This document shows, one piece after another, positions 32,151 through 53,439 of a stretch of 64,000 nucleotides of DNA. Location of the stretch: contig NADL03000528.1 in assembly GCA_002205965.3 (NCBI GenBank), positions 1 through 64,000 on the forward strand. Reading direction: 5' to 3'. This DNA comes from Kappaphycus alvarezii (Eukaryota > Rhodophyta > Florideophyceae > Gigartinales > Solieriaceae). The notes below the pieces were generated by a model, which was not told where the DNA came from, ran no database searches, and saw only the letters and a list, made by a program, of their open reading frames with translations. Positions within the stretch are counted from its first letter, which is position 1; every line of letters begins with the position of its first letter. Position numbers and translations under genes: made by a program.

Positions 32151-32309
32151 TGTAGTAAAGTGGACTTGTAAGGTCCACGCACCCGGTGGGGGTGTCAGAA
32201 GCGGAGCTTCTTCGGGAGACCAGTCTAGCTGGGCTAGACAGCTACAGGAGTAGCAGGGCAGAGCGACCGTAGGTCGCGCTGGAAAAGAATAGGAGGCCAG
32301 GTTCCCACA
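32151..32309 (-). repeat. Gypsy2 3' LTR with internal deletion
   Basis: Only 159 bp remain. The first about 145 bp match 49508-49645, then the sequence jumps to the terminal GGCCAGGTTCCCACA. About 590 bp are missing between short AGG-like matches. The hairpins AGAAGCggaGCTTCT at 32197 and GTCTAGCtggGCTAGAC are retained. Confidence 0.8.
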
Positions 32310-34457
32310 TGCCCCCATGCCGAGAGTTAAGCGTGTTCCACCGCGAGAAACGCGAGGAGAAAGGCCTGTGAACTGGTCTTGGTTATGGTTTCCGCTGCGC
32401 TTTTGAAGGAGTAGCAGTCATTTCTCACCATGGTCGGGAGTCCCGATCACGTTGGCAACCCGGTACTTTGGGTGCCGGACTAGCGTTGCTACTTAGCGTC
32501 AATACGCTGAAATCAATCCGGTCGAGGTTCTCCTCGACAAGCTCGTGTCGGTATGGGGAGTGGTTAACCCCATCCGAAAATTTTTGCCGTTTCAGGTCTT
32601 ACCTGAAAAGGGGGTTAGTATGACTGACTCACTTTTCCATGGTAGTAGCGTAGCTACTAGATGTTATACCCTTCGTGAGTCGTATTTTCTCGCGTACGGT
32701 ATTCCAAATTCCGTGCAGTTCTTCGGGGTGCAACTTGAGTCGGGCCAGGTTGACCTGGTGAATTATAATGTTTGGGGGCGGTCGGGTGAGCACGCCCCTT
32801 CGTTGGCATATAAAATGCCTTCACTGGGAGTTTCCGGTGGTAGTGTCATAAACCCTCTATGGTTGTGCCTAGCACGTGCGGCAAAACCCTGAAAAAACAA
32901 TAAAATTCCGAAATCGGGGTGTGGGTTTTGCCACGTTACAAAGGATTTCCTTGTGTGTCGGTGCACGCTTCTGCTGTGCAGTGAGGTATTTAACCAGGAG
33001 TCCTGGTGATTTCAGGTGCATACGTCACCTCTCCCAGCATCACGGTCCGATCAGATATCTCGTCGCCATTCGCTTGTCTTTCCTCACTCATCCATCCTCA
33101 TCTTCCTCCATTCACCTCTCCATCATAATCCATCATCAGCTTCCTTCTCTTCTTCTTCGCTAGCAGACAGCCTGTCTTGTCACGGCCGGCATTCTTGCTG
33201 ATGATAGATCAGCTGAGAGGGCAGGTCACCTGCCCAGTGCCGCTCCGGGTATCCCGAGGGCGATTGTTGACAGCAGAGACTGGCAGGTGCGCTTTGACAC
33301 TGCTGTTTGGGCCAAGACTGTCTTGGTCCACATCTCGAACAGGCTGAGGACTTCCTCAGTGTATGACACAATTGCGGTCGCCTTTTAGTCTTCACTAGGA
33401 TGCCTAGTCGAGGCGAGGAGTTCCTTCGAACTCGCGCTTAATTTCCAGAGTAGGGGAATCCCTATTTATCATCGTCATCCAACAATGTCAATCCCCTAGC
33501 AGGATGGTAGAGACTGTTTCAAGGGGACCTTTCTCTTATGTTTATGAAGTCTAGGGACTCCTGGAGACGTTGCAACTCAACGAAAGAGTTGTGATGTGAC
33601 CGGGTTCCCTGGTTACTGTTGAATTTCCGGCGGAATTTACAGAACAGCGCAATGGGATAACCCATTTGCGAAGTATCAGTTGATGATCTGATACTGGAGT
33701 GGGCAAGGATTGCTTGAAAGAATAGCGTACTGGAAATTCTCCGTCACGTAGGTTGTCAACGGAGGGTGTTTAGCCTCCCCGGCGTTCTGTATTGAATCAC
33801 GGTGCGGACTAGGGAACTTAGTCATTGTCACAAGGGAGATGAGCGGCTCTCATCCTATCTTGATTTTTGTCGAGGCTCGGCTCGACAGTACGGTTGGGGA
33901 TTTCCCCTTCATCCTTTGTGTGACAAGGTATCCGTTGTCGGTTAATATGTGACGCGTAGTTCGTCGCTTTTGGTGACAGGGCGTCATGTCCTGTCTTCTT
34001 TGTCGGTCGGAAGTGACGCGAAATTTCACAAAGCGGACCAACTCCGTTGGTCAGATGGGTGTGGGCTGTTCACGCACCCGTATAGTCAGGTCTTCCTGAT
34101 ATTGTAAGAGGCATGGGAGTGTCCCTTGTCTTCTTCATCTTGGAACAAAGTATTCCTTGTTGTACCCCTGTCCGACTCCTGTCGGAAGTGTCGCAACGGA
34201 AGAAAAGGGATTCAGGACGTCCTGACTGGATGGATGTGTGCAAGAGGTGACTCTGCGTAACTGAACTCGGGGAGCATGAGGATTGCGGTCGAGCGTAAAC
34301 TCGACTCTCGCTCGGTGGGCAAGGGAACGCTTGCCAATTTTGGCCATCACAGTTCGGAGAGTCAGCTCGAGGCTTCCAGAGGCAGGATATCCTGGCTTTG
34401 ACTGAAGAGCGGTCTCTAGTCGGAATTTTCGTTTGTGTCAACTCATGTTGGGGAATC
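32310..34457 (-). other. Gypsy2 3' noncoding tract, part 1, hairpin-rich
   Basis: There is no convincing gene here. A 115-residue plus-strand frame at 32545-32892 and a 123-residue minus frame at 34070-34441 are unsupported. The tract is dominated by short perfect inverted repeats, for example GTCGAGGttctCCTCGAC (32521-32538), GGGCAGGTcACCTGCCC (33219-33235), ACTAGGatgCCTAGT (33394-33408), GAGTTCcttcGAACTC (33418-33433), GACCAACtccGTTGGTC (34036-34052) and TCAGGACGTCCTGA (34212-34225). It continues beyond Gypsy1 at 41917. Confidence 0.75.
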
Positions 34458-35167
34458 TGATAGGGGTAAATCGTCGGGAGAAGAGATATTCAGAATCAAC
34501 CACCCCAAGAAGGAGGTGTTGCAAGCGACAAAAGTGCTACCGTGGTATAGTTGAACAAAAAAAGGAGTGTATAGGGAGAGAGTTGAAGGGCTACAAGCAA
34601 GTATAAGGGGCAGGGTCTACCACTGATGCTTGCGACTAGCTTAAAAAAAGTTCTTGGGTCTGAAGTTGACTCTCAACTTCCTACTACTCTGGACTTGGCT
34701 TGAAGTTGTCTGCCAACTTGCTTGACCTCTCAAGGAGGAAGCACTTTACTCAGCTTATATAGACTTTTCGGCTAATCCTAAAGTCTCAATCAAACATACT
34801 AAATACCATAAAACGCATTCACGGGAATCGTGTGAACCAGAGAGACCATTAGAAGATATTTCCTCAAGGTAAATATCTAGGTGCCATACCCATGCCAGCC
34901 ACCCATCGGCCAGGGGTGGGAATTGATGTGGCCATTATATAGACCTTTCAGAGTCACTCGTAGTATCACCCACAACCTAGAACTGTACTGACATCCACTA
35001 TGACAGCGTGTCCTAAAATAAAAAATCAACCGATGAATTTGCCACACTCACCCAAATTAAAAATATCTTGCAAATTCAAAAACTGTAAAAATATCTTCCC
35101 AGTTCCAATACTGTATACAATTATGGTCCTCATCTAAATTTTTTCGTGTGCGAATTTGCGCACATCA
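34458..35167 (-). repeat. Gypsy1 3' LTR
   Basis: 710 bp, homologous to 41202-41916. On the minus strand it runs from TGATGTGCGCAAATTCGCAC to GATTTACCCCTATCA. A TATATAAG promoter-like box lies at about 34755-34765. The purine-rich GAGCGGGAGGGCG directly precedes it on the minus strand and is the likely polypurine tract. Differences from the other LTR cluster in the R-U5 half. Confidence 0.9.
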
Positions 35168-35200
35168 CGCCCTCCCGCTCAAGACGAACGTCCCGGCTCG

Positions 35201-36259
35201 TCACTGCTCTTGTTGTTCTTGTGGGAGTTCTATCCATTCATCAGGGAGAGTATAGGGTTCACTATAAGGATATGGTAGTAGCTCATTTCCAATATGATGA
35301 GAGAGTGTGTACCGTGCGATGACCGGCTCATCTCCTTGGTCAAGAGTTTCGTAGATTCGGCGTATGGTTTCATAGTGTTCTCTAATGAGCTCCTCCCGTT
35401 TCACTTCTCCAAACCTTCCAAATGTGAGGTAGTAAACGTAGTATGCAAACTTTTCTGGCAACGGGTCCAGAAACGGGTATCTGAAGGAGAAAAAAACTCG
35501 CAACATAAGGACTGAGTCCTCACGAGTAAGGTGCGCCCCGTGAATGGTCTGGAAGCACATGCAAATACTAATGGCAAAAAAGGAAATTACTTCTGCTTCT
35601 CGGGTCCTCTGTCATTTCGCGAAGCCAACGTCTAATTGGTAGCCGTCCAATAATTAAGGATGCATAGTTTCCCCCTGGGAGACTAGGCGGTGTTTGAGGC
35701 GATCTTCTTGGCGATCTTCCTCGCTGCTCCCGACGCCTTGCCCTCTTCGATGATCCGCCCCGATCACTTGATGGTCCAGCTCGTATCATCATCACGGCCT
35801 CGGGAGGATCCTGGTCTTCGGCTGAGGTTGTGTTTCTGAGCGGAGCAACGTAAGGTTCCCATAGAGGATATGGGACCAGTCGATATTCCATATCAGGGGG
35901 CAAGCTGTAACCTCTCAGTCGCACATCTTGGTTGTTCTTGAGAAATACGTAAACTGGACGGATAATGTTCAGATATGTTTGCGACAAGTCTCCGATAGCT
36001 ACCATTCCATACCTCCTATAGAGTAATGATATATGACTTCCACAAACTCTGGACCTGCTTCCGTGAACCTTCCGTTTTGGAATGAGAATAGAACTCTGAT
36101 CAATAGTCGGAAATCTTCTTGAGGTAGCAATGGTCCGTTCAACGTACGAAAACATAGGCATATATTAATGTAGAAATGGATGATTACGTGGAGTTCGTAG
36201 TAGTCACGCGTAATCGAGATGATCCATTCCCAGGCCCTTTTTCCTCCCATAGGAATCAT
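35201..36259 (-). CDS. Gypsy1 accessory region: tandem copies of an unknown domain
   Basis: Between pol and the 3' LTR, minus-strand frames encode two related segments. The first (36259 to about 35840) reads INICLCFRTLNGPLLPQEDF ... LLIRVLFSF ... LVPYPLWEPYV. The second (about 35600 to 35201) reads AISICMCFQTIHGAHLTRED ... LMLRVFFSF ... LLPYPYSEPYT. A basic, Arg/Ser/Pro-rich linker (about 35650-35790) separates them. Each copy contains one frame change, so the region is either decayed or expressed through frameshifting or splicing. A stop and ATG overlap (ATGA at 36256-36259) links it to a short upstream frame at 36256-36480. I recognise no family. It occupies the env position but shows no signal peptide or clear membrane anchor. 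Confidence 0.6.
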
Positions 36260-36494
36260 TCTATAGTTAAAGATGAGTATGCCCGTGGTTGCGCATAGTC
36301 CTGTGTGAGAAGGAATTCTTCAGGCCTCTGATGGTAAGGGACCAGACGACGTGCATGGATTGCCCTCCTTGATCTCTTCCCTGAGCTTGAACAGAGCTTA
36401 TAATGCGGGTGTCTTTCCTCCGTGACGATGCAAGGGTTCGAGTACTTTGTTTGGAAAGCCGGCCACTTCACAGCCTGCATTGCTTTTCCGTGTG

Positions 36495-38900
36495 CTACAA
36501 GTACTTTAGAGCCGACTGGAAAGTTTGGACTGGAGGCTCTTCATCCTTATTTCTTGTCTGTGTTAGCGCGCGGTGTGATCTCCAGCTTTCGGTGGCCAGT
36601 AGTTCGACCTCTCTACTCTCTTCATCGATAACATTTGTTTCCATATCTCTCTGTAACATTCTAGGAGCTCTTCCGTACATTAGCTCAAACGGTGACCGTC
36701 CACTTCTTCCTCTTCTTCGACGATAGCCGTATAACACTTTTGGTAAGGCATCTTCCCACTGGATTTCATTCTCGGACATAGTTTTCGATATTGATCGTTT
36801 GATGGTTCCAACCATCCTCTCCGCTTTCCCGTTTGACATAGGAGCATATGCGAGAACTGTCTTTAGCTGAATACCTTTTTCTTCCAAGAAACGAAGCAGT
36901 GAAGTTGCAGTAAAACAAAGTGCGTTATCCGAGATGATCCTTTTTGGAAGACCAAACGGTTCAATTATTTCTTTTTCGATGAATCTCAGGACCACTTCAG
37001 CATTGGCCTCCTCAACTGCAACTGCTATTGGCCATCCAGTAAGATGTTCCACCCCTATAAGGAGATATTTGTTTCCGGAAGAGGTTTCCTTGAATGGGCC
37101 GGCAAAGTCAATTGAAAAGGTTTCAAAGAGACCGGAAACTGGAAAGCCTAGAGTTGTCTTATACTTTCGTATTGGCGTGAATTTTTGACAGTTGTCGCAG
37201 CTTTTCACGAAGTTATAGACGTCCTTATGGATACTGGGCCACCAGAATCTCTCAGTAACGAATTTCTTGGTTGTTTCGAGATCCCAATGCCCTAACTCAT
37301 CATGAAAAGTCCTCAAGATCTTCATTCTTTCTTTCAAAGGGGCCACTAGTCGAGGACCGGCTTTCGTGTGTCGGAAGAGTTTCCCATTCCATAGTGTAAA
37401 AGCCTTTTGATTCCTGCGTACCCAATTTCTGTGTTCAATATCAACCTTTCTCATTTCTAGTCCATCCAGGAATTTAATTAGTCCGTCAATATTAGCTTCG
37501 TACTCGTTATTGTTCGGCACTTGCACCTCGGCAACTCCGACGATGTTCTCGGAAGCTTTTTCATTTGGAATCAGTGGATCCCTCAAGCGGGATAGGTAGT
37601 CGGCAGGCTGATTATTGCGTCCGGGCCTATACACAATTTCAAACCGATATTCTGCGAAAATGTCGAGCCATCGGGCCAAGCGGTGATGTACATCTTTCTT
37701 TTGGAATGCTGTCTTAAGTGCCTGGTGATCAGTTATCAAGACAAATTTCTCGAGTGATAAAAGGTATACGCGAAACTTTTTCAGTGCGAAGACAACAGCG
37801 AGCGCTTCTTTTTCGCAGACTGAGTATCTCCTTTCCGCATCATTCAGAGTGCGACTTGCGAATTGAACCGGGTGTAGTCTTCCGTTTTCATCTTTTTGGG
37901 ACAAAACGGCACCCAAAGACCGTTCTGAGGCATCTGTCTCCACAACAAATGGTCTCTTGAAATCTGGATACATGAGCACTGGGGGGACACATAGCTTATC
38001 TTTAAGCTCTTCAAATGCGGTTTGCATTTCCTTGTTCCATAAAAATTTTCCGTTCTTTGTTGTGCTGGCATGTAACGGTGCTGCAGTCTTGGCGAAATCT
38101 TTGATAAATCTCCTGTAATATGAGGCCAGTCCTAAGAAGCTTCGAACCTCCGTCTTTGAAGCGGGCCTTGGTGCCAACTTGATTTTTTTCGTTTTCTCTG
38201 GATCCACTTTAATTCCCTCTTGATCGACGATATGACCGAGTAATTGGATAGACGTTTTCGCAAAGAAGCATTTGCTTAACTTAATTTTCAGGCTGTACGC
38301 AGCTATTTTCTCCACCACAGTCTTGACATGCGATATGTGCTGATCCAAGGTTTTTGAGAATATCACTACATCATCGATATAAACTCTTGCAAATGGAAGT
38401 CCTTTCAAAACCTCGTTCATCATTCTTTGGAATGTAGCTGGGGCATTCATGAGACCAAAAGGCATCACTTCGAACCTGAATGTACCGGCTTTGCTGGTAA
38501 AAGTTGTTTTTTCCTTGCATTTTTCATCCAATGGAATCTGCCAATAACCAGTGTAAAGATCAATTGAGGTGAAGTATCTCCCGTCCTTCAAGTCCTCGAG
38601 GATTTCCTCCATATTCGGAATCGGAAATCGATCGGGTATCATTCTCTGGTTCAGTTGTCGGTAATCGACGCAAAAACGCAGCTTTCCATCCTTCTTTGGT
38701 GCGACCACAACTGGAAATGACCATGGGGATGAAACTGGCCGAATAATATCATTTTCCAGCATACTTGTAACATTCTCTGAGATAAATTGGTCATATTTTG
38801 GCGGTTGACGTCTAGGCCTGTGGTAAATTGGTTGAGTATCGGTAAGTTCAAATGAGTGAGTGACCGGTACACTTGCTTGTCTTAAATCTGAACGCTCCAT
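36495..38900 (-). CDS. Gypsy1 pol: RT-RNase H-integrase
   Basis: An intact 801-codon frame. RT: VVVAPKKDGKLRFCVDYRQL at about 64-83, motif A Asp in TSIDLYTGYWQIP (about 114), and catalytic YIDD at 174-177. RNase H: acidic residue in VETDASERSLGAVLS (about 323), then LITDHQAL (about 391) and PADYLSR. Integrase: HHCC zinc motif (H533, H538, C568, C571), catalytic Asp in FSIDFAG (598), Asp in IISDNA (658) and Glu in NGKAERM (694), giving DD35E. There is no chromodomain. The Met at 38900 is the first in frame; in the element pol probably continues from the protease region by frameshift or readthrough. It copies the element RNA and inserts the cDNA. Confidence 0.93.
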   Translation of the reverse strand: MERSDLRQASVPVTHSFELTDTQPIYHRPRRQPPKYDQFISENVTSMLENDIIRPVSSPWSFPVVVAPKKDGKLRFCVDYRQLNQRMIPDRFPIPNMEEILEDLKDGRYFTSIDLYTGYWQIPLDEKCKEKTTFTSKAGTFRFEVMPFGLMNAPATFQRMMNEVLKGLPFARVYIDDVVIFSKTLDQHISHVKTVVEKIAAYSLKIKLSKCFFAKTSIQLLGHIVDQEGIKVDPEKTKKIKLAPRPASKTEVRSFLGLASYYRRFIKDFAKTAAPLHASTTKNGKFLWNKEMQTAFEELKDKLCVPPVLMYPDFKRPFVVETDASERSLGAVLSQKDENGRLHPVQFASRTLNDAERRYSVCEKEALAVVFALKKFRVYLLSLEKFVLITDHQALKTAFQKKDVHHRLARWLDIFAEYRFEIVYRPGRNNQPADYLSRLRDPLIPNEKASENIVGVAEVQVPNNNEYEANIDGLIKFLDGLEMRKVDIEHRNWVRRNQKAFTLWNGKLFRHTKAGPRLVAPLKERMKILRTFHDELGHWDLETTKKFVTERFWWPSIHKDVYNFVKSCDNCQKFTPIRKYKTTLGFPVSGLFETFSIDFAGPFKETSSGNKYLLIGVEHLTGWPIAVAVEEANAEVVLRFIEKEIIEPFGLPKRIISDNALCFTATSLLRFLEEKGIQLKTVLAYAPMSNGKAERMVGTIKRSISKTMSENEIQWEDALPKVLYGYRRRRGRSGRSPFELMYGRAPRMLQRDMETNVIDEESREVELLATESWRSHRALTQTRNKDEEPPVQTFQSALKYL

Positions 38901-39112
38901 GCAATTACTTCGGAAGATGTTAACATGTCGGATATTATCATTGAGGCGGGGGCTGGAAGGTGCTGTACTTTTTCTTGAATTTCTCCAATTTGGCGCTGGT
39001 CCTTTTCTTGATCCTCACCCTCCAAATTTTGAAGGACCTCTTCCGGCGTGCTCACATCTTCAGATATGGAATTCGATATATTCCTTGTTTTCCGTGCAAT
39101 TGTAATCTTCTT

Positions 39113-39826
39113 TCATGCCCGAATTCCGTCCTTTGATTCGATATTATCGCAAAAAGAAACACATTCAGGTGTCAAACCTACCCTAGAATTCCATTCTTCA
39201 TCTGTTTCAAACCCAGAATCATAATCGTCCCATGTCATGTTCATTGTCCCCCGAGCGTACCCTTTCTCACTTCCGAAAGTGTTAGTTGGTTCGGAATCTT
39301 CGCTGTCATAGCTAGAAGTGAAATCTTCACTGTCCGTCTCTCTTAGATCTTCCGGATGTGTGCTTTTGTCGAAATCCAGGGGCATCTTCACGTTTCTGCC
39401 GTCAACATTAACTGAAACGATTTGGTTGCCCAAGTCAATGCAGGTCCCTAGTCTTTCCATGGTAGGACAGCCAATGATTGCATCGAAAGGGAGCTCCGGC
39501 ATGACGAGAAAGTCTACATCAACTTTAGAGTCCCCAAAGAACACGGAAACCTTGTTAACAGTGCCCATGCATTTTGAACGGTTCCATCCGCCACAGTTAT
39601 TCTTCGAGTAGTTGGAATAATTTCGAGACCTAATCTGTCACCAAAGTTTCTGAATAAGGTTTGGAACAGCGCCCGAATCGAAAAGAGCTTGGGTTTGCAT
39701 TCCCAATACTTTGACTGGTACTAGTTTAAGACGTCTTGGTGCTGTCGAGGCCGATTGAAGAAACAGTTTCTTACCCTTAGCGGACTTATTAGACCTGATA
39801 ATTTTTTTGAGTTCTTTTTCTCGCAT
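39113..39826 (-). pseudogene. Gypsy1 aspartic protease region
   Basis: Two adjoining minus-strand frames form this region. The first (39638-39826) contains GMQTQALFDSGAVPNLIQ, with DSG in place of the usual DTG; DSG also occurs in active retropepsins. The second (39113-39568) continues with DFLVMPELPFDAIIGCPTME, the second conserved part of the fold, and then a long acidic tail (many Asp, Glu and Ser). A stop and frame change lie between them near 39600. It should process the Gag-Pol polyprotein. Confidence 0.7.
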
Positions 39827-40105
39827 CCTCTGCGTCGCCCCTCAAAAGTTGACCAAACGTTATCCCAGTTGGGGCCGATGCAAGCTCAGCCACCAAATTG
39901 TACTTCTTCACATATTCTAGTACGTCCTTGGGATACTCTTAAATTTCTTACTCTTTTCGTCTTCTTGGCCGAAGTGTTTCCCACCCTGGAACAACTTGAT
40001 CAAGCCTCTTGGTTCGAGGAGGTACAGGTGCTGGGATATGCTCCAGCATTCCATAATCTAGCCTAGGTTTTTTCGATAAAACGTTCCCTTCCCCATCCCT
40101 TTTTG

Positions 40106-41112
40106 TCACATTAACTTGACTGATTTCTTCAGCGATGGATACATTACCGGCATCCGCCAACTTTGATCCTTCTGTTTTGTAAGATTTTCATCTCTGGTCC
40201 TGACTCTCCTCGCGTCCGATAAATTTGCTCTTCTGTTGTCTTTAGACCAGCAGTTACTTTCATGATGCCCGTAACGACCGCACTTTCCACAACGAGTGTT
40301 TCTATGTGGATTATCAGGACACCTATTTGCAAAGTGTCCAGGCTTGTGACAGTAGGAACAGACTTCTGCGGCCTTGGGGGCCCCAGACTGGTTCTTCTTA
40401 ATGGTAAGAGTAAGGCTTTCCAACTGCGAGGTTATCATGTCAAGTCGATTATCGAATCGGGTTTCCAACCTTTCTTCCAAGTTTTTGACATCGCTCCTGA
40501 CTGATTCCAATGCTGCTGCGCTAGTAGCTGGCCTTTGATAATTCTTTTCAGGATCACGATCGGCATAGATGTACGGGTTTCCCTCGGTATTTCACTTAGT
40601 GACTGAAACGTCTCCGAATTTTTGACAAATTCTACTATGGTACCCTTCAGTTCATTAAAAGTGTGAGGGCCCTTGATGAGGAGGAAATCGGAGAGCCGCT
40701 TATCCCCCATCGCCGCCTTACGCAGCATTCCGTACTTGGCTTGGGCGTTGAACCCAGCCTTTTCATAGAGATCACACAAGTATACCAATGAGCTTAACAA
40801 ATCGTCGAAGTTGAGCCGGGCCTCTATGGCGGTACGAATCATCTCATCTGGTTCTACCTGCTTAGCATATTCTTTCACAAGCCACTCACATACCTCACCG
40901 AAGTTACGCCCATTCCCGTTAAGAGACCACCCGTTGATAAACTTGGCCTTATATTTGTGCTTTGCGTCACCATGAAGATAGGCGAAGATACTTTCGGCCT
41001 TCTCTTCATCGCTCTTCTCACGCATCACAACGTTGACATATGTATAGAGAAACTCCTCAACGTCTTCATTCTTGCCCCCTGTGAACGTTATACGAGCAGC
41101 GTTGAGATCCAT
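40106..41112 (-). pseudogene. Gypsy1 gag with two zinc knuckles
   Basis: The N-terminal frame (40435-41112) starts MDLNAARITFTGGKNEDVEE and includes a helical capsid-like segment (AESIFAYLHGDAKHKYKAKF). The reading frame then changes near 40560-40580. The second frame continues with a coiled segment and two CX2CX4HX4C knuckles, CSYCHKPGHFANRC and CGKCGRYGHHESNC. The knuckles bind genomic RNA and the capsid part packages it. A further short frame to 39948 resembles the end of the old gag at 50430-51640 (VTKRDGEGNVLSK versus ATKRDAEGISLSK), so coding probably continues. Whether the frame change is a mutation or programmed is unknown. Confidence 0.75.
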
Positions 41113-41183
41113 GATTACAGAAAAGAAATCCCCTCGAATGGTTCCCTAAGACTGCTCAACTCGAATACCTCGGGTGCAACCCC

Positions 41184-41201
41184 CTCCACAAGAGTACCAA
41201 A
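41184..41201 (-). promoter_or_regulatory. candidate Gypsy1 primer-binding site
   Basis: Directly inside the 5' LTR the minus strand reads TTTGGTACTCTTGTGGAGG. Its TGG is expected for pairing with a tRNA CCA end. I did not identify the tRNA. The inverted relative after 28975 keeps a similar GGTA...TGGAG pattern. Confidence 0.5.
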
Positions 41202-41916: not shown

Positions 41917-42633
41917 GAATCTCGAGCACACTCTCGCGCTCGAGTATCCGATAATGGGAGGAGTTCCTCCCAAGTTTTCACTTGACTCATGGATTCCTGA
42001 GCAGCTGTCCTTGCTGGCGGTGTACAATTGTACAGGGGTACACTTGTACAGATGTCCAAGTGTACTTAGGACAAACTGCCCTGACTAGTATGCCTGATCA
42101 TTGCTGTCCAAGATTGAGCTTGGCACTTGACAATTTCAAAACCAACTCTGTTGGATGCTCAACTCTTAAGCACATACATCAGAGTTCATCAACTCAGAGG
42201 AGGTAGGCCTCCTTGGATACGATTACTACGACCATGTCGTATGTAGGTAGGTAACCTAACTTGTATAAAGTCAACACTGGATGACGGTATTCGACTATAA
42301 ACACAGAGGGGTGTCCCTGTTAGGGGTACAGTGCAGTGACACTGTAAAAAACAGAAGTTGAGGTGATCCTCCACATTGGAACGTAAGTCGCCATAGTTAT
42401 AAACCATTTTCAGGTAGTCCTGATAACAGGAGGTGTCTTCTTATAAAGTCACCCTTACCAGGTAGTCCTGGTTGTTTCACCATAGTAACTACTAATCACA
42501 GTGTGCACCGGCGAGAGTAGGCCCCTCCCCCACTCCCCGGGTGAAACACCAGGGTATCTGGTTAACCGTGACCCAATGGGGGTGTCCCCATGGATATTAG
42601 CCAAGGATCTCCTTGTTGTTTACCATCTGGTTG
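41917..42633 (-). other. Gypsy2 3' noncoding tract, part 2, hairpin-rich
   Basis: This continues the tract broken at 34457. It starts with the second copy of the Gypsy1 target duplication. Perfect hairpins include GGGAGGAgtTCCTCCC (41956-41971), TCAGGtagtCCTGA (42410-42423), ACCAGGtagtCCTGGT (42457-42472) and CAAGGatctCCTTG (42602-42615). Together the two parts give about 2.9 kb between the chromodomain stop and the 3' LTR. Confidence 0.75.
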
Positions 42634-43482
42634 TCACTCAGATGGGCGGTAGTACTGAGGTGGTCTCAGCCGCCAGCCTCGGTGGTAATGCGCCACCGCG
42701 TTGAAAGGAATTGAAGACCTGGGTTCCCAACTATCATAGTTCGTCCAGCGGATGCGGTACAATCCGCTGTCATGATCGTGATCGACTATCCGATCAAATG
42801 CATAGGGACCAAGGTCACCTGGAGCTTCAGTGAGGTCTTCCTCACTTTCGTTTGTAGTCGGGGTGCCCCATGCAGGTATGTCTTCATTAGTCCGATGTGT
42901 CCTAGTTAATCCTTGCCCTTGTGCAGCAAGGCGGGAGGAACGGCGAAGCGTTGCTTTTTGTGGACTTTCCTCCCTGTCGGGGGTGTTATCCCTCCGACCT
43001 AAGCGAAGAAGCGGTGCTTCTTGTTCTTGTTCGGCCGTGGGGTTTGGATCCTCAACTGGTATCGACTCAGGATTACCCTGAGAAGCTTCCGTCCCTTGCT
43101 GAGAAGGTGACGTGGTTGAGACCCCCGAGTCAGGAATGTCCTGACTTCCTGGAGTATCGGGTGGGCCCGATTGAGTTGCACTCGGCAGTGACCGAGTAGG
43201 TGCCTTCGATATGCGGTCTTGAGTTACCGTATTCTCAAGACCGTCTCGAAGGATGGTAACTGTATGTGAAAAAACCCTCAAAACTGGGTACGGACCCAAC
43301 GCCTTCGCTCGAAGCTTGTGCTCCGGTAGATTATCAACCGGCTCTTTGCTCAGCGCGTTTGTCTCGTCCCCTCTCGTTCTTTCGCGGCTGACGAAGACCG
43401 ATTCGCCCATTGGGATGTCCTCAGTGCTGGATCGTAAGCTTCGATCGTAATAAAGCTGGTATGCAAGTTGAGCTTTGCTCAA
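42634..43482 (-). CDS. Gypsy2 integrase tail with chromodomain
   Basis: A 282-residue minus-strand frame. It begins with the end of the integrase, includes a GPY-type module (LGPYPVLRVFSHTVTILRDG) and then a long Pro/Ser/Glu-rich linker. It ends in a chromodomain: FDRIVDHDHDSGLYRIRWTN, then YDSWEPRSSI. The pattern hydrophobic strand, IRWxxYDSWEP and final helix is diagnostic. Such domains steer chromovirus insertion to particular chromatin. The frame is joined to 43421-43717 by a frame change, so it is part of a broken pol. Several hairpins lie inside these codons. Confidence 0.85.
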   Translation of the reverse strand: MSKAQLAYQLYYDRSLRSSTEDIPMGESVFVSRERTRGDETNALSKEPVDNLPEHKLRAKALGPYPVLRVFSHTVTILRDGLENTVTQDRISKAPTRSLPSATQSGPPDTPGSQDIPDSGVSTTSPSQQGTEASQGNPESIPVEDPNPTAEQEQEAPLLRLGRRDNTPDREESPQKATLRRSSRLAAQGQGLTRTHRTNEDIPAWGTPTTNESEEDLTEAPGDLGPYAFDRIVDHDHDSGLYRIRWTNYDSWEPRSSIPFNAVAHYHRGWRLRPPQYYRPSE

Positions 43483-44672
43483 ATTCTTCTTCGAAGTTGC
43501 AAGAAAGGCCTACAAACGATCGTAGAAGCGTCGCTTCACTTGGCTCGGGTGTACATCTTCGAGCTCGGTTGACCTCACTCTCTTCAAGGCGAGTGGGGTT
43601 GGGAGCCCGGCCGAGCACCAGCTCAAATGGGGTGTGACCGGTTGCCCGTTGCACGTTATTATTGTGACTATAGGTTACGGCGGCGTGGAACTGATCCCAG
43701 TCCCCGTCCATGCTCACTACAAAAGTGACGCAATGCCGACAGGATGGTCCTGTTTAATCTCTCCGTCTGACCATTGGTCTGCGGATGATAGGCCGTCGTA
43801 AACAAGTTACGTGTGCCCAAGACGGAGCATACGCTCTCGAAGGACTACCTGCCAAACTGACCTCTGTTGTCAGTCAGCAAATATAGGGGACTCCCGTATA
43901 CGAACAACTATTCTCCACAGAATGCTTCAATGATCGTCACCGCGGTAACATTTCGCAATGAAAATGTTCGAACAAGCTTCGAAAATTGATCTGTGATTAC
44001 CAACAGGTATCGATAACCCAAGGAAGTCCTTGGTAAGGGACCGAGGATGTCGATCCCTACGAACTCTAGTGAACTCGGGGCTGGAAACAACTTCGCATGC
44101 TTTCTAAGATCAATTCGCTCTTTCTCGCAGCTCGTACATTGCCGCACGGTATTATAGGTGTCTAGCGCCATGCTAGGCCAGCAGAAAGTACGAAGAAGAG
44201 TCATGTACATTCTTGTACCTCCGGGATGCCCGGACATATTTGCGTAATGGGATATCATAAGCACGCGCGAGCGGAGCGACGATGGTAAGTGGATCTGTAC
44301 CGAGTCGTCTACCTTCGCTAAGCGCACGACCAGTCCACGCTGGTCGATCGTAAAGTCCCGAACCTTACGTTCTTCAGTGCTGAAGGAGTCCTTCACTTCC
44401 TTGCAGAAGTTATCATTCTCTTGTTCTCGGAGGATCTCCTCCGTTATGAGCGGTTGAAGCTCACTGGCTGGCTCGGTAACCGAAATCGCGTCCAACGAGG
44501 TTAGCTCGTGGTCTAGACTGTCTTTACAGTCGATATCATCGAGGTCCTGACACTCGATGGATCCGACGCAGGTTCCCTGCGTTTGGAACCAACACGTTGG
44601 AATATTCCGTGTTTCAGCAAGGGCGGCCTTGCTTCTTAAATGAGCTGGGATAACAAAAATCCGAAGGAACAT
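43421..44672 (-). pseudogene. Gypsy2 integrase
   Basis: Frame 43908-44672 holds the HHCC zinc module (HYANMSGHPGGTRMY ... CTSCEKE) and the first catalytic Asp in FVGIDILGPLP. After a stop and frame changes, 43740-43890 encodes LTDNRGQF (second Asp) and AYHPQTNGQTERLNR (Glu). Frame 43421-43717 continues with ATGHTPFELVLGRAPNP. All three catalytic residues are recognisable, but a TAG codon and frame changes interrupt the domain. Confidence 0.8.
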
Positions 44673-45259
44673 TCTTCACGGACTGCGGACTCTTCCTCAG
44701 CTTCAACTAGGAAGCAGGGTACTTCCCAATCTCCAGCGAAATCCGTTTCGCTCTCGGTGTATAACCGAGAAATAGCCTCTGCTATTTGGTTATTCACCCC
44801 CTTTTGATACCCAAGGGTGAGATGGAATTCCAGGAGGCGGGCCAACCGACCGGTACTGTCGGTGGATGTCATCAACCAGCGTAATACCTGGTGATCTGTG
44901 AAGAGTTGGAACTCTTCACCTTCGAGGTACGGGCGGAACAGTTGTACTGCCCATACAACAGCGAGGCATTAATTTTCGCTTGTGGAATAGTTCTTCTCGG
45001 CTTGACTGAGCGAGCGGCTCCAGTAGCCGATGGGATGACGAGTGCAATCCGGGTACTCTTGAAGTAGGGCACAACCTACTTGTTTGTCGCACGCGTCAGT
45101 GTTGAGCAAATAGGGTAGATTAGGTTGAGGTTCCCTCAACACTGGCGGCTCGATAGGTGCCTGCTTAAAGGAAGTAAACGCTTCCATCTGGTCAGAGTCG
45201 AGCTCTGAAAGTTGGAAGAAGGTTCCCTTCTTCAACAACTTGTTGAGTGGCGCGACCAA
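44636..45259 (-). pseudogene. Gypsy2 RNase H
   Basis: Frame 44969-45259 contains YLLNTDACDKQVGCALLQEY with the first acidic residue, ending SQAEKNYSTSEN and a TAA. Reading through the TAA, the same frame continues CLAVVWAVQLFRPYLEG, then FQLFTDHQVLRWLM and NQIAEAISRLYTES (the usual ADALSR site). It degrades RNA in the RNA-DNA hybrid. The single stop and a later frame change are the visible lesions. Confidence 0.8.
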
Positions 45260-45325
45260 TCTCGAAAAGTTCGGGACGAATCTCCGATATACATTGAACA
45301 GACCGAGGTAACTCCTCAGTTAAGT

Positions 45326-46306
45326 TTACGTCTGCGGCGGTTTGAAACCTTTCACCGCTTCGATGTTTTCGGAGGCAACCTCGAGTTTTCCCGGCCTGAT
45401 AACATGGCCGAGGTAGTTGACCGTAGATATGAACCACGTACATTTCTTCAGCTTTAGGGAAGCCCCTGCATCCCGAAGTACGTTGAGTACTCCGTCAACA
45501 TGATCGAGATGTTCCTCGATGGATTTGGAGAAGATGATGATATCACTCAAATACACCAAACAAGTCTTCCACTTGTATCGCGCCAGCAGGATTTCTACCG
45601 TCCGCTGGAACGTGGCTGGTGCGTTGCATAGCCCGAAATAAATTCGGCAAAACCGATAGCAGCCTTCGTTGCAGACAAATTCTGTCCTGTCCTTATCCGG
45701 GTCTCGGATAGGTATCTGCCAGTAACCGCAGTTACAGTCTAAGGCGGTGAATACTGTCGCCTCACCTAGAAAGTCCAGGCATTCGTCCATTTGAGTGAGC
45801 GGGTAGCTGTCCTTGACCATGGTGGCGTTGAGCTTGCGGTAGTCGATGCAAAACCTCTTGCTCCCATCCGGTTTGAGCACCAGCACCACAGGGCTGGCGA
45901 ATTCCGATTGAGCGGGCTCAATCCCCTTCGCGTCAAGCAATCGTCTGACCTCTTTCTCTTCCACTTCGCGGGCCTTTGGTCCTGTGCGATAGGGATGTGA
46001 TCTCACTGGGACTGACCCAGGAATCAACTCTATCCGATGTTCAGTCACCCGGATCTTACCAAGGTTGCCTGACCATATGGCTTCATGTTTGACGAGCATT
46101 GCCCGAACTTTCTTCTGCAGGTCGGGGGTGAGGTGTGACAAGTCGACGTCATCAACCCCCAACTTCTCATCGGCGGGGCCGAGTTGCGACGGCACAGCCG
46201 AGTCTTCCTGTCCCTTCTTGTTCTTCCCGTCGAGGTTAACCTCGAGTATGGTGTCGGGCATCAGCGATGGGTACCCTAATATCTGGCTTTTTGCCAGATA
46301 TCTCAT
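45326..46306 (-). pseudogene. Gypsy2 reverse transcriptase with mutated active site
   Basis: A 326-residue minus-strand frame covers most of the RT: VVLVLKPDGSKRFCIDYRKL, TALDCNCGYWQIP (motif A), YFGLCNAPATFQR (motif B), then LVYLSDIIIFSK. The usual YLDD is YLSD here, so the first aspartate of the catalytic pair is replaced by serine, which should abolish polymerisation. The frame ends early in the connection region (VKGFKPPQT), and coding resumes in another frame at 45259. Confidence 0.88.
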
Positions 46307-46485
46307 CTTGGTTGAGTAAAGTAGTTCGCGATCTTAACCAAGAATGGCTTGCTCAGTTGAATCGAGACTATGCCATTGCTCAGACTAACCTGAAACTTCC
46401 GGTATAACCTGGGGTATGTCTACAATAAGAGATCCCCTTGAAGGGAAGCTTGAACTTCCACAGCTTTCTCCGATTCGGGGGGCAG

Positions 46486-46923
46486 TTAAAATCGGCTGGT
46501 AGTCCGAACGAGCTTTTCTCGAGGTACTTCCTCGAGGAACGGTTCCGTTTCCAATGACACGCGACGGAACGGAACCACTGCGTGTCGTTTGTGGATCCTC
46601 ACTGTAGCTCCGCTACAGAGAACTACTTTTCGACGGCGGATGTGGATGAGTTCCATGTGCCGGTCGATGAAGGTAGTACCGATAGTCTCATCGGCGCCGA
46701 GTTCCTTGACGACTACAAAGAGTTGCTTGACTTTCAAGTCCCCAATGCTAAGCTCCAATGATACTAATCCCATTGCCTTCAGACGATTGTTTGAAGCACT
46801 AGATAGGTTAACAATTTCTTGTTCGCGGTTGGCGTTAGCAACAACCTCTTCTAGATGGCAAGCTGCCTTGAAAAAGTTTGGTCCTGCACCGGTGTCAAAC
46901 TCGGTGTTGTATGCTTGAAGCAT
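46486..46923 (-). pseudogene. Gypsy2 aspartic protease
   Basis: A 145-residue minus-strand frame has YNTEFDTGAGPNFF with the catalytic DTG. It continues with KQLFVVVKELGADETIGTTF, the expected second half ending in an IGxxF-type turn. It lies between gag and RT, as in other Ty3/gypsy elements. The frame is open from MLQAYNT to a stop at 46486, before the RT frame. Confidence 0.8.
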
Positions 46924-47137
46924 GTCTTAGGTAGCCCCAAGCTCTGGAAAAACCTTGAGTTGTATCGCGATAAGTAGCAGACTGGGTCTGCATGATACTC
47001 CTCCATGGTAACGTGTGAAGGTAGACCGTGAGGTCTAGATAGGATTCCTATCTTCGATGGTCCAGTATCGGTAACGCCCGACATTCCCCTTATGGGAGAG
47101 GGTTCTGCCGGGGGCTTCTGGTTGTGGCGGACCCCTC

Positions 47138-48370
47138 TCATTTTTCCGACTCCGTCGGAGCTTCGGTGTCCGAGAAGGAGACATGGCGTTCTTCCTTCGT
47201 AACAAAGATCGAGGATTCCCTCGATGGTAACTCAGATCTCACCGGGGGTGCCAGTGGATCACGAGCATAAGACCGGCCTTTCCTTTCCGCAGTCAGGAAG
47301 CGCGGTGCTCTTCCTACGGCTCGAAGGAAATCCTTCTGTTGTTTGGACAACTTCTCGTAGTTGTCCCGAACGACCCTCGCAAAATGCGGGTCTGTATCAG
47401 GTCTACCCTGATCTGGACAGTAGGTACAGCGATGTCCCAGCCGATAACATTCAAAGCAAATGTCTGAGGGTTGATCTTCAGTTGTAACCAAACCAAGCTT
47501 CTTTTTCTTGGTGGGTTGAGACCATGGCGGCCGCCGCGGGCTACTTGCCGGTATGACGCCCGATGTTGCGTCAGGTTCCTCCTGACGAACCTGGAAACGG
47601 GCTGACTCGAACTTCGTTGACGAGTCATACGGTCTTGAAGAAACAAAATACTCTTCCGGATGCAGGGCGAATACTCGATCGCCCTTGGGTCGAGCGGCCA
47701 TTCGATGGCGCTCTTGCGAGCCATTTACCTTGTCGATGGTATCTACGGAAAGAGCTTCTGCTCTCCGGGATGATCTTGTCAGGGGTGCCTGCTTCCGCAC
47801 AAGGGCGCGGTTTGCCTCCCCCAGTGCTGCGGCCTTCTCGACGAAGTCTAGAAAAGCCCTCGGGTTGCACCGAGTCTGAGCGAATTGTCGCTCAACTTGA
47901 AGCAACGGCTTAAGTTCAGGTAAAGGTCCCCTTATGAAGCGCGTGATGATGTCCTGCTCGGTGTAAAAAGCTCCACAGGACCTCGCAACCTTACGCAGGC
48001 GACCAGCAAATGATAACTCCGTTTCATCCGGCTTCTGCAGGAGGTTGTCGATCTTTTCGACCACCCTCTCGATCGTACGATCAGTGGCATACATGCGCAG
48101 CAAGAACTGCACGGCTCCAGGGTAGGAGGCGAATCCTCCACTACCTTCCTCGCCAAATTCGAAGTTGGCCTCGAAATGTTCTCGGGCCTCACCCGAGAGA
48201 AAGATGTGCAACAAGATGAGGGCGGCTCCCTCACTTACGCGATTGTTATCGCATACCTTCTCGTACGCAGACAAGAACGGGATGACTGAGATGGGATCTG
48301 TCCCATCAAACTTGCGCGCGCCAAGCAAATGCTTGAGGGGTTTGTAATGGTGGCCAGTATCGGCGAGCAC
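47138..48370 (-). CDS. Gypsy2 gag, capsid and zinc-knuckle part
   Basis: A 410-residue minus-strand frame. Residues about 10-170 form the capsid-like region (KFDGTDPISVIPFLSAYEKV ... LSFAGRLRKVARSCGAFYTE). Residues about 310-325 form one zinc knuckle, CFECYRLGHRCTYC (CX2CX4HX4C). The tail is Arg/Glu/Ser-rich. In the element the protein probably starts further upstream (48370-49422) and is cut off here by a frame change. It packages the element RNA. Confidence 0.8.
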   Translation of the reverse strand: MLADTGHHYKPLKHLLGARKFDGTDPISVIPFLSAYEKVCDNNRVSEGAALILLHIFLSGEAREHFEANFEFGEEGSGGFASYPGAVQFLLRMYATDRTIERVVEKIDNLLQKPDETELSFAGRLRKVARSCGAFYTEQDIITRFIRGPLPELKPLLQVERQFAQTRCNPRAFLDFVEKAAALGEANRALVRKQAPLTRSSRRAEALSVDTIDKVNGSQERHRMAARPKGDRVFALHPEEYFVSSRPYDSSTKFESARFQVRQEEPDATSGVIPASSPRRPPWSQPTKKKKLGLVTTEDQPSDICFECYRLGHRCTYCPDQGRPDTDPHFARVVRDNYEKLSKQQKDFLRAVGRAPRFLTAERKGRSYARDPLAPPVRSELPSRESSIFVTKEERHVSFSDTEAPTESEK

Positions 48371-49422
48371 GTCACGATCGATGTTCTAGTCGGTGTTGCG
48401 CAGGCGATACCTGCGATACGAGACGACGCGAGCAAAATTCGGCTCGGCCGGTTGGATTTCTCTGAGACACTCATATCTGGGACCCTACCCAGGATTTTCG
48501 TTGGGGAGTAAGTTCTCACCCCCCCCCGGTGTATCCATTCCGAGATGTCCTCGGCCTCGGCCTTGCGGGCCTTTTTTTCCAGATGATTCTGGAACCAGCG
48601 ATTGACTCGCTCGGCGGAGTCACTGCGGACACTTCTCGGCTTCCCACTGATGCCACAAGCAGGACAGTGGAGTCCGGGGCAACCCTGGCCATGGTCACGG
48701 ACAGGGCAAAGGAGCCTTCTGTCCATTGTATCTCTCGGTACTGGGCTCCAGCTAGATGATGGAGAACGATCTCTGTGGAGAATAAGCTCCGGTATTTGAT
48801 CACGCAAGTCCGAAACCTTGCGCTTCTCTTCTTCAAGCTCTTGCTTGAGGTCCTAGAGCTTCTGCTCGAGCAGTGAGTCAACCATGGCGGCTCCGACGAG
48901 CCGGCCAACCTGACTAGCATCTGCTACTGTTCGCTCTTCTCTACCGGGGCCGACCATCTCCTGACAGAGAGTCGTATGGAAGGAGTCTTCCTTCCCTTCG
49001 TCTTCTCTTCCAGCGCTGACTGGAAGGCGGTCAAACGATCTTCGAGCAATTGCTCGAAATGTGCCATCACCAAGCGAAGCTCGGGAGGTAGTGAAACTTT
49101 AGGAACATCCTCAATTCCAGATCCGGGCCAAGTTTTCGGCCTTTGTTGAAACTGGGGGAATCCCAGTCGACTCCTCCGGCATCGCCGGTGGTTGAGCAAC
49201 TAGAACGGGTTCGCACGTTATCTGTTCCACCAAATGGGATGTTCCCAGCTTGGGAAGAGGATCAGGAATTCCCTGATTACGCGGTCGCGACGCACGCAAT
49301 CCCTCTCCATTGTTGGAGTAATTGACACAAGGAACTCCTCGCAAAGCGCCATCCGAGGGTCTTCCCCGGCTGTTCGCATCCGAAGCAAAAGACATCTTGC
49401 TGATTTCAGTGGCATAAACCAC
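48371..49422 (-). pseudogene. Gypsy2 gag N-terminal part, frameshifted
   Basis: Several minus-strand frames overlap: 49111-49422 (start MVYATEISKMSFASDANSRG), 48924-49199 (with PELRLVMAHFEQLLEDRLTA, a helical segment) and 48235-48807. Just upstream of the last is a charged stretch like LKQELEEEKRKVSDLRDQ that suggests a coiled coil. They probably formed one N-terminal Gag extension broken by three or more frame changes. Confidence 0.5.
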
Positions 49423-49492
49423 GAAACGAAATAGAAGGTATTCCTTCTACAAAATTACACTCAGTGGTTCTTCAGAAAGGGAAACCTTTCTA

Positions 49493-49507
49493 GGTCGGGA
49501 GAGCACC
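49493..49507 (-). promoter_or_regulatory. candidate Gypsy2 primer-binding site
   Basis: Directly after the 5' LTR the minus strand reads GGTGCTCTCCCGACC. It is TGG-like except that the first T falls in the LTR end (TACA). The matching tRNA was not identified. Confidence 0.4.
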
Positions 49508-50259
49508 TGTAGTAGAATGGACTTGTAAGTTCCACGCACCAGGTGGGGGTTTTAGAAGCGGAGCTTCTTCGGGAGACCAGTCTAGCTGGGCTAGACAGGA
49601 ATATCAGGGCAGAGCGACCGTAGGTCGCGCTGGAAAGGACTAGGAGGACACCCTAGGATCTTCCAGATGAATCCGGAGTGGGAGATTGGTAGAAAGGAAA
49701 AGGGAAAGGAGGAAGAAAAGAAAGAAAAGAGGAGGAGGGAGGCTGTTAGTAAGTGTAAGCTATCCTACTCCGGGAAACACCCGAACGTGTTAGTAGGTGT
49801 GACTACTACGGTCACTGTGTCTACTACGGACACGAATAGCGCCGCCTACTCTGGACGCACGCCAGTTGGTCTAGCTGTAGCAATCCCGTGCAGCGCTATG
49901 CTTGACGGCACTCAACTAGGCCAAACCTAGACAAACTACACCGAACTACTCCGGTCTCGGTGGTGCTGGTCTGGGGATCGGTCTGATGGTTCCTTTTTCG
50001 TTTACTGGTAGGGCTCCTAAGGCCAAAGCCCTAAATAGTACCGGTTCCACCTACCGTGGCACTGTCAAGTAATTAGTTCTACAGTAATTACTAAAATAAA
50101 GGGATAATTAATGGAATAGATGTAATCGCCTTGGCCTTACACGTGGCCCTAAAACGTGGAAGTCACACGTGGCACTTCACGTGTGCCCTGGACAGGACAG
50201 ACTTTCCGTACTGTAGTAAGACAGTATGCGCGCGCAAAATAAAAGGCCAGGTTCCCACA
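49508..50259 (-). repeat. Gypsy2 5' LTR
   Basis: 752 bp, homologous to the solo LTR at 29505-30162. On the minus strand it begins TGTGGGAACCTGGCC and ends CTACTACA. It contains many hairpins, including AGAAGCggaGCTTCT (49554-49568), GTCTAGCtggGCTAGAC (49580-49596), GCGACCgtaGGTCGC (49614-49628) and two adjacent hairpins with the same loop TACTACG (49799-49833). Confidence 0.9.
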
Positions 50260-52229: not shown

Positions 52230-52305
52230 GGTTTAAATGGCGTCAAAAGGTTACGCTCCCTAAAAAGCTACCTTCAGGCCAGCCGTCAAGCAGGCCGCAT
52301 TGGAC
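52230..52305 (-). repeat. LINE-B fragment, inverted
   Basis: CTCCCTAAAAAGCTACCTTC, then AGGCCAGCCGTCAAGCAGGC and CGCATTGGACATGAT, matches 55180-55235. It corresponds on the minus strand to the C-terminal LINE-B codons (VMSNAACL...AGL-type). Confidence 0.65.
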
Positions 52306-53405: not shown

Positions 53406-53439
53406 GGGGAAATTAAGAGGCACTCCTAGGTAAGGCACA

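What the first reader, a model, noticed from the sequence alone, without database searches (positions are those of the whole stretch)
32151..50259. A retrotransposon saturated with short perfect hairpins
Gypsy2 sequence, coding and noncoding, contains several dozen perfect inverted repeats found by eye, often one every 30-60 bp. Stems are 5-10 bp, loops mostly 1-6 nt. Examples: 32521-32538, 33219-33235, 34036-34052, 41956-41971, 42829-42846, 43128-43146, 44900-44917, 45124-45140, 45215-45233, 46279-46301 (9-bp stem). The nested Gypsy1 at 34458-41916 looks nearly free of them, so the pattern follows the element, not the locus. A comparable idea, palindromic hairpin elements, is known from fungal mitochondrial DNA, but I know of no such description for a nuclear chromovirus. 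Possible causes are selection for structured RNA, a fold-back copying bias of its RT, or spread of tiny palindromic inserts.
Basis: partly seen in the sequence, partly recalled or inferred. Interest (0 to 1): 0.92.

Follow-up and report, generated by a model that had tools for sequence, protein, structure and literature searches.

The report
Retrotransposon RNA built of hairpins
A jumping element in what is probably a red seaweed carries about ten perfect little hairpins per thousand letters, genes included, apparently because evolution keeps its RNA tightly folded, as in some RNA viruses; what the folding is for is not known.

Summary
Gypsy2 holds 107 perfect hairpins (stem >=6, loop <=6) in 10.65 kb, where Markov-model shuffles give about 15-16; the nested Gypsy1 has 16, shuffles 11-13. 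The excess is confined to short loops, survives codon-preserving shuffles, and covers LTR, untranslated and coding parts alike. All 20 other copies fetched are enriched. After insertion stems decay neutrally, so the trait belongs to the mobile lineage. Between subfamilies stems change slowest (45/1182), loops fastest (39/354), the rest in between (297/4812). Hairpins stay fully paired across families in 202/459 comparisons, against 16/232 for long-loop controls, with excess compensatory changes. Tiny inserts are excluded in the RT; template switching is disfavoured. Related gypsy elements in the same genome range from 16 per kb to no excess at all. Best reading: selection for genome-wide ordered folding of the element's RNA, like GORS of RNA viruses. 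The folding excess, 26-28% in one element, compares with the highest virus values in a paper using another method. Purpose, shielding or Gag-driven packaging, is open. G-U pairs show no preference, the main result against an RNA reading.

The parts
32151..34457 (-). Gypsy2, 3' part (sense = minus strand): truncated 3' LTR 32151-32296 plus 3' region; 25 hairpins
41917..50259 (-). Gypsy2, main part with gag, RT, integrase and 5' LTR; 82 hairpins, about 12 expected
49505..50259 (-). 5' LTR (inner boundary inferred from copies such as L022 and L024); 6 hairpins
47138..48385 (-). gag-like open frame (PF03732, E 8.7e-4, 19.9 bits, below the curated cut-off of 24.1)
47417..47458 (-). CCHC zinc-knuckle pattern (sense position 2802 of 41917-50259, converted to window coordinates by hand)
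45326..46333 (-). reverse transcriptase frame (PF00078, E 2.4e-28)
43908..44675 (-). integrase zinc-binding domain frame (PF17921, E 1.1e-12)
34458..41916 (-). Gypsy1, nested later (LTRs 34458-35167 and 41202-41916, 95.8% alike; GAATC on both sides); no significant hairpin excess: internal control
46279..46301 (.). example hairpin, 9-bp stem, 5-nt loop, inside the RT frame
44898..44919 (.). example hairpin, 10-bp stem, 2-nt loop
43128..43146 (.). example hairpin, 8-bp stem, 3-nt loop
45215..45233 (.). example hairpin, 8-bp stem, 3-nt loop
33219..33235 (.). example hairpin, 8-bp stem, 1-nt loop, 3' region
49041..49058 (.). example palindrome, 9-bp arms, no loop, between the gag-side frames and the LTR

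Best explanation
Gypsy2 belongs to a group of Ty3/Gypsy-like elements whose whole transcript has been under selection to fold into a string of short, perfect stem-loops, with pairing in excess up to about 7 bp and loops mostly 3-5 nt. Shown: the excess, its independence of composition and codon use, its presence in coding and noncoding parts, neutral decay after insertion, slow stems with fast loops, compensatory change, and lineage specificity. Inferred: that the folded molecule is the sense RNA (composition-corrected folding excess higher in sense than antisense in each structured sequence tested), and that the benefit is a compact, shielded genomic RNA that resists host small-RNA or nuclease attack and/or is easier for Gag to condense and package. 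In the Gypsy2 clade the hairpins also share a directional preference (A-G-G on the 5' side of the loop, C-C-T on the 3' side, loops mostly A-rich), which suggests that something may read them.
For: Excess only at short loops. All 20 other copies enriched 3.5-9 fold. Codon-preserving shuffles in five copy segments and three open frames (L043, L048, L051). Private changes after insertion occur at like rates in stems and elsewhere. With hairpins defined in other families, between-subfamily differences are stem 45/1182, loop 39/354, rest 297/4812 (stem vs rest p 0.0013, loop vs rest p 0.0011); with hairpins defined inside the subfamilies 50/1577, 58/398, 409/5672 (L017) and 38/1097, 46/283, 505/6986 (L009). 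Fully paired in another family: 202/459 against 16/232 for long-loop inverted repeats; changes on both sides that keep pairing: 97/147 against 26/71; single pair L017 to L032: 23/45 against 1/20 (the 17 pooled comparisons share sequences). Mean folding z per 150 nt -1.8 to -2.7 sense and -1.5 to -2.4 antisense in six sequences of the clade; Gypsy1 0.05, right flank -0.19. Folding excess 26-28% in three pieces of L048's element, Gypsy1 -0.9%; sense above antisense in 11 of 11 sequences with excess >=10%, and in 15 of all 18.
Against: G-U pairs in the sense strand are not preferred: fixed single mismatches G.T 15 and 13 against A.C 15 and 18 (loosest setting; stricter settings lean to A.C); all copies pooled 41 against 80; in L048's element 21 against 42, part of which composition would give. 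RNA selection usually favours G-U. The raw folding energy is lower in antisense in all six sequences, as it is for their shuffles. The directional motif is not seen in the other hairpin-rich clades, and L054 of the Gypsy2 clade lacks A-rich loops. Lowered pairing at an eighth pair in the six sequences is not seen in L048's element (13/52). L061, with no excess at stems >=6, still has a folding excess of 10.4%. No transcript, probing or binding data exist here; nearly all sequences come from one assembly and are related.
Confidence: 0.68

Rival explanations
1. Dispersed packaging signals: each hairpin is a low-affinity binding site for the element's own Gag, so that dozens of sites along the RNA drive its condensation into the particle. 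A special case of the best explanation.
For: A rather discrete size class (16-18 nt) and, in the Gypsy2 clade, directional preference A-G-G / C-C-T (L017: pair 2 G 61 against C 7; pair 3 A 46 against T 8) with A-rich loops (0.34-0.38 against about 0.25 in four copies). Gag zinc-knuckle pattern in 9 of 21 Gypsy2 copies. Uniform spread over the RNA.
Against: Loops are the fastest-changing sites, whereas recognised loops are usually conserved. Motif not seen in hairpin-rich L063, L057, L051, L043 (18-30 hairpins each). No binding data.
Confidence: 0.25
2. Mutation, not selection: the element's reverse transcriptase or host polymerases copy fold-backs (template switching), which creates and maintains perfect hairpins.
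For: The mechanism is documented for RNA genes, including multiple compensatory changes and asymmetric pair frequencies (PMC8794818, abstract and passages). Lineage specificity could follow the RT.
Against: Differences do not cluster on one arm: 31 of 133 hairpins with two or more changes, about 34 expected (nine comparisons that share sequences). 0 of 130 changed loops inverted, 0.01 expected by chance; this excludes only switches that take in the loop. Stems are the slowest class. Post-insertion changes break stems as freely as other sites. A host process should also mark Gypsy1 and the relatives without excess. The paper's asymmetry is G-C over C-G and U-A over A-U; here A-T exceeds T-A at pair 3.
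Confidence: 0.1
3. A DNA-level function: hairpins act in single-stranded cDNA or as extruded cruciforms in the integrated copy.
For: No G-U preference; loops of 0-2 nt are also enriched, though these can be longer RNA loops whose inner bases happen to match.
Against: Neutral decay in the integrated copies. Composition-corrected folding excess higher in sense than antisense in 11 of 11 structured sequences and in 6 of 6. A-rich loops in the sense strand of most of the Gypsy2 clade.
Confidence: 0.1
4. Spread of tiny palindromic inserts.
For: Fairly uniform size, mostly 16-18 nt.
Against: 22 of 22 RT hairpins of L048 lie in a gap-free alignment with P0003 (66% identical over 480 residues, no gaps), 21 of 21 with P0011 and 19 of 22 with Gypsy1's pol. 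Gap-like absence of a hairpin in another family in 1 case, against 459 mapped. Stem sequences diverse.
Confidence: 0.01
5. Chance or an artefact of composition or codon use.
For: None found.
Against: Markov models of orders 1-4 and codon-preserving shuffles; excess confined to short loops.
Confidence: 0.01

Closest known systems
Genome-scale ordered RNA structure (GORS) of positive-strand RNA viruses
   Same: Many sequential short stem-loops along the whole RNA, coding parts included; folding energy well below shuffles; paired sites vary less than unpaired ones (PMC7642675, abstract and passages).
   Different: Here in a nuclear LTR retrotransposon; hairpin positions often stay homologous across families about 20% apart, whereas the paper says pairings are poorly conserved; stems are short and perfect. 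Folding excess 26-28% in three pieces of one element, about 6 kb (dinucleotide shuffles, 240-nt windows); the paper gives 15% for SARS-CoV-2 and 23.4% as the highest whole genome, but up to 35.8% for single regions, by another shuffle method.
Multiple dispersed RNA packaging signals (MS2, STNV, parechovirus, hepatitis B virus)
   Same: Many small stem-loops spread over one RNA, some with a shared motif (search listing with abstract openings only).
   Different: Not shown to bind Gag; loops are the least conserved part; motif only in one clade.
Template-switch-made hairpins (Monttinen and Loytynoja 2022, PMC8794818)
   Same: Perfect short stems with compensatory changes.
   Different: One-arm clustering and loop inversion not found; stems slow, not fast.
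Double-hairpin elements and palindromic GC clusters of fungal mitochondrial DNA (recalled, no call)
   Same: Genomes rich in short hairpins.
   Different: Those are, as I recall, mobile inserts; in the RT these are not inserted.

Membership tests
Ty3/Gypsy LTR retrotransposon | LTRs, gag, protease, RT-RNase H, then integrase | tested here: met
   RT and integrase domains in the window; LTR pieces; protease (weak, below cut-off), RT, RNase H, then integrase in order in L048's element
Chromovirus | chromodomain at the integrase C-terminus | tested here: inconclusive
   no PF00385 at E<=1 in the 518-aa open integrase frame of L052; a divergent domain could be missed, and the window copy is too broken to decide
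GORS | folding energy lower than shuffles across the whole RNA | tested here: met
   (computed folding, not measured)
GORS | sequential short stem-loops in coding and noncoding parts | tested here: met
   all eight sections 7.9-13.2 hairpins per kb
GORS | paired sites less variable than unpaired | tested here: met
GORS | positions and pairings poorly conserved between relatives | tested here: not met
   202/459 mapped hairpins fully paired in another family; a feature reported for GORS, not part of its definition
GORS | the RNA folds so in vivo | not testable with these tools
   needs chemical probing
Dispersed packaging signals | specific binding by Gag or coat protein | not testable with these tools
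   no binding data
Dispersed packaging signals | shared recognition motif | tested here: inconclusive
   present in the Gypsy2 clade, not seen in other hairpin-rich clades
Template-switch hairpins | multi-base changes on one arm copied from the other | tested here: not met
   31 one-arm cases of 133, about 34 expected
Template-switch hairpins | inverted loops (only in switches that take in the loop) | tested here: not met
   0 of 130; the paper itself found them rare

The most novel reading that the evidence does not exclude
A lineage of nuclear LTR retrotransposons carries a genome-wide code of discrete, protein-read RNA hairpins, whose size and motif differ between sister lineages in one genome and co-evolve with each lineage's Gag: a packaging or recognition code written across the whole RNA, on top of its protein-coding message.
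Probability: 0.22. Interest if true: 0.93.

Novelty: new variant of a known kind. Interest (0 to 1): 0.8.

Why it matters
Large-scale RNA folding is known from RNA viruses, and its purpose is debated. Here it appears in a chromosomal retrotransposon, at a computed strength comparable with the highest whole-genome values in the virus paper read, with related elements in the same genome ranging from saturated to no excess. That gives a natural comparison inside one host: which elements are silenced, packaged or transcribed more? It also shows a large RNA-level constraint on the coding sequence of a mobile element, which would mislead age and selection estimates that treat synonymous sites as neutral. 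My searches for prior reports listed 15 of 275, 15 of 56, 12 of 35 and 0 of 0 papers; no listed title describes a hairpin-saturated retrotransposon. They cover open-licence PMC papers only, and I read listings, not those papers.

Tried and rejected
Composition or codon artefact: rejected. Tiny inserts: rejected for the RT. Template switching: tested by arm clustering, loop inversion and rates, disfavoured. Active avoidance of stems over 7 bp: suggested by the six sequences, not confirmed in L048's element, so I claim only that pairing returns to chance after about pair 7. G-U test for strand: no preference, A.C if anything. Rfam: 0 matches at gathering scores in 32151-50259. Viral contigs: none of 7 and none of 41 pattern matches encode a relative. 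Genome contigs: 15 contaminant loci, of which L043 is clearly hairpin-rich (26 hairpins, Markov models 6.5 +- 2.6); L035 (38 against 19), L041 (22 against 12), L033 (20 against 12) and L036 (21 against 13) are 1.6-2 fold, not followed. Host naming: searches for a Kappaphycus genome paper gave nothing useful; that its genome is about 336 Mb is recalled. Codon register of hairpins in L048's open frame: 14 of 27 pair second with third positions, exploratory.
Full report
WHAT WAS CHECKED. The ten examples are perfect inverted repeats at the stated places. I counted stems >=6 with loops 0-6, each hairpin counted once at its innermost closing pair. Gypsy2 has 25 in its 2.3-kb piece and 82 in its 8.3-kb piece, 107 in all. 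Sequences generated by Markov models of order 1-4 (100 per order) give 11.7-12.7 for the large piece (maximum 24 over 400) and 3.1-3.8 for the small one. Gypsy1, nested inside it, has 16, models 11.4-12.5. The right flank has 21, models 21-22; the left flank 81, models 53-56. The excess depends on loop length: in the large piece stems >=6 number 6, 6, 9, 16, 19, 15, 11 for loops 0-6, against 1.5-1.8 per loop length at loops of 21-60. So this is not composition, which would raise distant inverted repeats equally.

WHERE IN THE ELEMENT. Sense is the minus strand. Density is 7.9-13.2 per kb in all eight sections counted: LTR, leader, gag, gag-pol region, RT-RNase H, integrase and two 3' sections. 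With synonymous codons shuffled within the frame, 500 times, observed against mean: 12 against 2.4, 7 against 1.35, 14 against 2.5, 10 against 1.4 and 14 against 2.9, above every shuffle in each of the five segments tested.

THE FAMILY. The genome (336 Mb, 884 contigs, unnamed) gave 41 matches to a 1-kb piece. I fetched 20 copies, and all are enriched 3.5-9 fold over their own long-loop background. I grouped them by identity into subfamily B (L017, L019-L028), which is tight and star-like, and the more scattered A (window, L009-L014, L016, L018); L015 was too short in the compared part and was left out of the counts below. In the RT-RNase H and integrase segments, differences shared by each subfamily outside hairpins fall mainly on third codon positions (17/600, 3/594, 91/595), with no majority stop codon; indels shared by three or more copies are one of 3 bases (14 copies) and a 1-base deletion (3 copies of B). 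So both lineages were coding while mobile. Changes private to one copy, which date from after insertion, occur at like rates in stems and elsewhere: old copies lose hairpins neutrally. The hairpins were thus a property of the moving element.

SELECTION. Defining hairpins in one copy biases rates, so besides that count (stem 50/1577, loop 58/398, rest 409/5672 with L017; 38/1097, 46/283, 505/6986 with L009) I defined them in seven loci of other families (L029-L032, L048, L052, L053) and counted A/B differences there: stem 45/1182, loop 39/354, rest 297/4812. Both contrasts with the rest have p about 0.001. A state counted as shared if at least 60% of at least five copies had it. That loops change faster even than the rest suggests that much of the rest is also paired. 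Between A and B, five pairs changed on both sides with each reference and kept pairing. Across families, 202 of 459 mapped hairpins are fully paired in the other sequence, against 16 of 232 long-loop inverted repeats found in the same way; 664 and 541 could not be mapped and were left out. Where both partners changed, pairing was kept in 97 of 147 cases against 26 of 71. These 17 comparisons share sequences; the single pair L017 to L032 gives 23/45 against 1/20 and 14/20 against 3/6.

AGAINST MUTATIONAL ORIGINS. Template switching predicts changes on one arm. Among 133 hairpins with two or more differences in nine comparisons, 31 had them on one arm, about 34 expected. No changed loop of 130 was an exact inversion; the paper on this mechanism says that switches within one strand need not touch the loop and that inversions are rare (PMC8794818, passages), so this is weak evidence. 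In the RT of L048, 22 of 22 hairpins lie in a gap-free alignment with a 66% identical protein, 21 of 21 with another, and 19 of 22 with Gypsy1's, so they are not inserts.

SHAPE OF THE HAIRPINS. In L017 exact stems with loops 3-6 are 48 of 6 bp (5.2 expected), 35 of 7 bp (1.8), 3 of 8 bp and 1 of 9 bp. In six sequences of the Gypsy2 clade the chance of a further pair is 0.37-0.63 for pairs 4-7 and 0.10-0.19 at pair 8; in L048's element pair 8 is at chance (13/52). The 5' side next to the loop prefers G, G, A going outwards, and loops are A-rich in sense in L017, L019, L009 and the window, also in L030-L032, weakly in L029 and L048's element, not in L054. L063, L057, L051 and L043 lack the stem preference.

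WHICH STRAND. Per 150 nt the mean folding z is -1.8 to -2.7 in sense and -1.5 to -2.4 in antisense, for six sequences of the clade; Gypsy1 and a 10-kb flank are near zero. Raw energies are lower in antisense in all six, as are those of the shuffles. Folding excess over dinucleotide shuffles in 240-nt windows is 26-28% (sense) and 21-24% (antisense) in three pieces of L048's element, and -0.9% in Gypsy1; sense exceeds antisense in 11 of 11 sequences with excess >=10%, three of which are one element, and in 4 of the other 7. Against an RNA reading, G-U pairs are not favoured: G.T 15 and 13, A.C 15 and 18 among fixed single mismatches, 41 against 80 over all copies and 21 against 42 in L048's element.

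LINEAGES. A protein search gave 80 RT matches in the genome. Of the 14 loci fetched from these, five are clearly rich at stems >=6 (L048 40 in 2.5 kb; L054 21, L055 19, L057 11 and L063 16 in about 1.5 kb each; 0.7-3.1 expected); L051 has 14 in 2 kb (3.1 expected); L056 (4, expected 1.1) and L062 (5, expected 2.1) are weak; L049, L050, L058, L059, L060 and L061 have no clear excess at stems >=6 (1, 2, 1, 1, 3, 2 against 3.9, 3.7, 2.5, 2.6, 1.9, 1.2). Shorter stems blur this: L050 and L056 have an excess of 5-bp stems (16 against 7.2 and 4.7), L060 of exactly 4-bp stems (41 against 20). L061, and weakly hairpinned L062, still have folding excesses of 10% and 15%. On an RT tree (FastTree, rows partly merged over frames) the rich Gypsy2 clade, a second clade (L063, L057 and L043) and a mixed one (L051, L062, L056, L060) stand apart from L049, L050, L058, L059, L061, of which the first three are near-identical in RT. 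L043 lies on a contig filed under a bacterial MAG (JALZUP010000409.1) and is probably a contaminant from some eukaryote: 26 hairpins, models 6.5 +- 2.6, loops 0-2 in 20 of 26.

HOST. Among the best 120 of 627 RT relatives, the eukaryotes named are the red algae Chondrus crispus and Agarophyton chilense; one more name is a bacterial MAG. The species is not established.

CONCLUSION. Selection on the folded RNA is the best reading. It works like GORS of RNA viruses, for which a paper gives 15% for SARS-CoV-2, 7-9% for HCV, 23.4% as the highest whole genome and up to 35.8% for single regions (PMC7642675, abstract and passages; another shuffle and window, so not strictly comparable), but differs in host, regularity and positional conservation. 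Whether it shields the RNA or serves Gag is undecided.

Noticed in passing
34458-41916: Gypsy1 is a nested LTR element with 95.8% alike LTRs, GAATC on both sides and an 839-aa open pol frame. The five bases on either side of Gypsy2 differ at one place.
   Followed up: partly
29501-30167: Pieces resembling the Gypsy2 LTR (75-88% alike), perhaps a solo LTR of a relative.
   Followed up: no
56280-57284: 334-aa open frame matching PF09994, the Tle1-like phospholipase domain family (E 2.5e-51); here probably an ordinary eukaryotic family member.
   Followed up: no
23476-23506: 31-base near-perfect palindrome with a 15-bp stem in the left flank.
   Followed up: no
52252-62367: Several dispersed repeats, e.g. 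53526-53944 against 58596-59016 (96.7%), and a shorter one shared with 18887-19077.
   Followed up: no
L043:2313-4100: Weak dUTPase-like match (PF00692, E 0.0038, below cut-off) before the RT; the corresponding part of L048 has a weaker herpes dUTPase match (E 0.029).
   Followed up: no
L043: Probable eukaryotic gypsy element on a contig of a Robiginitomaculum MAG, closest to L057 in the RT tree; its hairpins prefer loops of 1 and 3.
   Followed up: partly
L060: Excess of exactly 4-bp stems (41 against 20 expected) and hardly any longer: hairpin size may be lineage-specific.
   Followed up: partly
L035, L041, L033, L036: Other MAG contaminant contigs with gypsy RT show 1.6-2 fold hairpin counts.
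   Followed up: no
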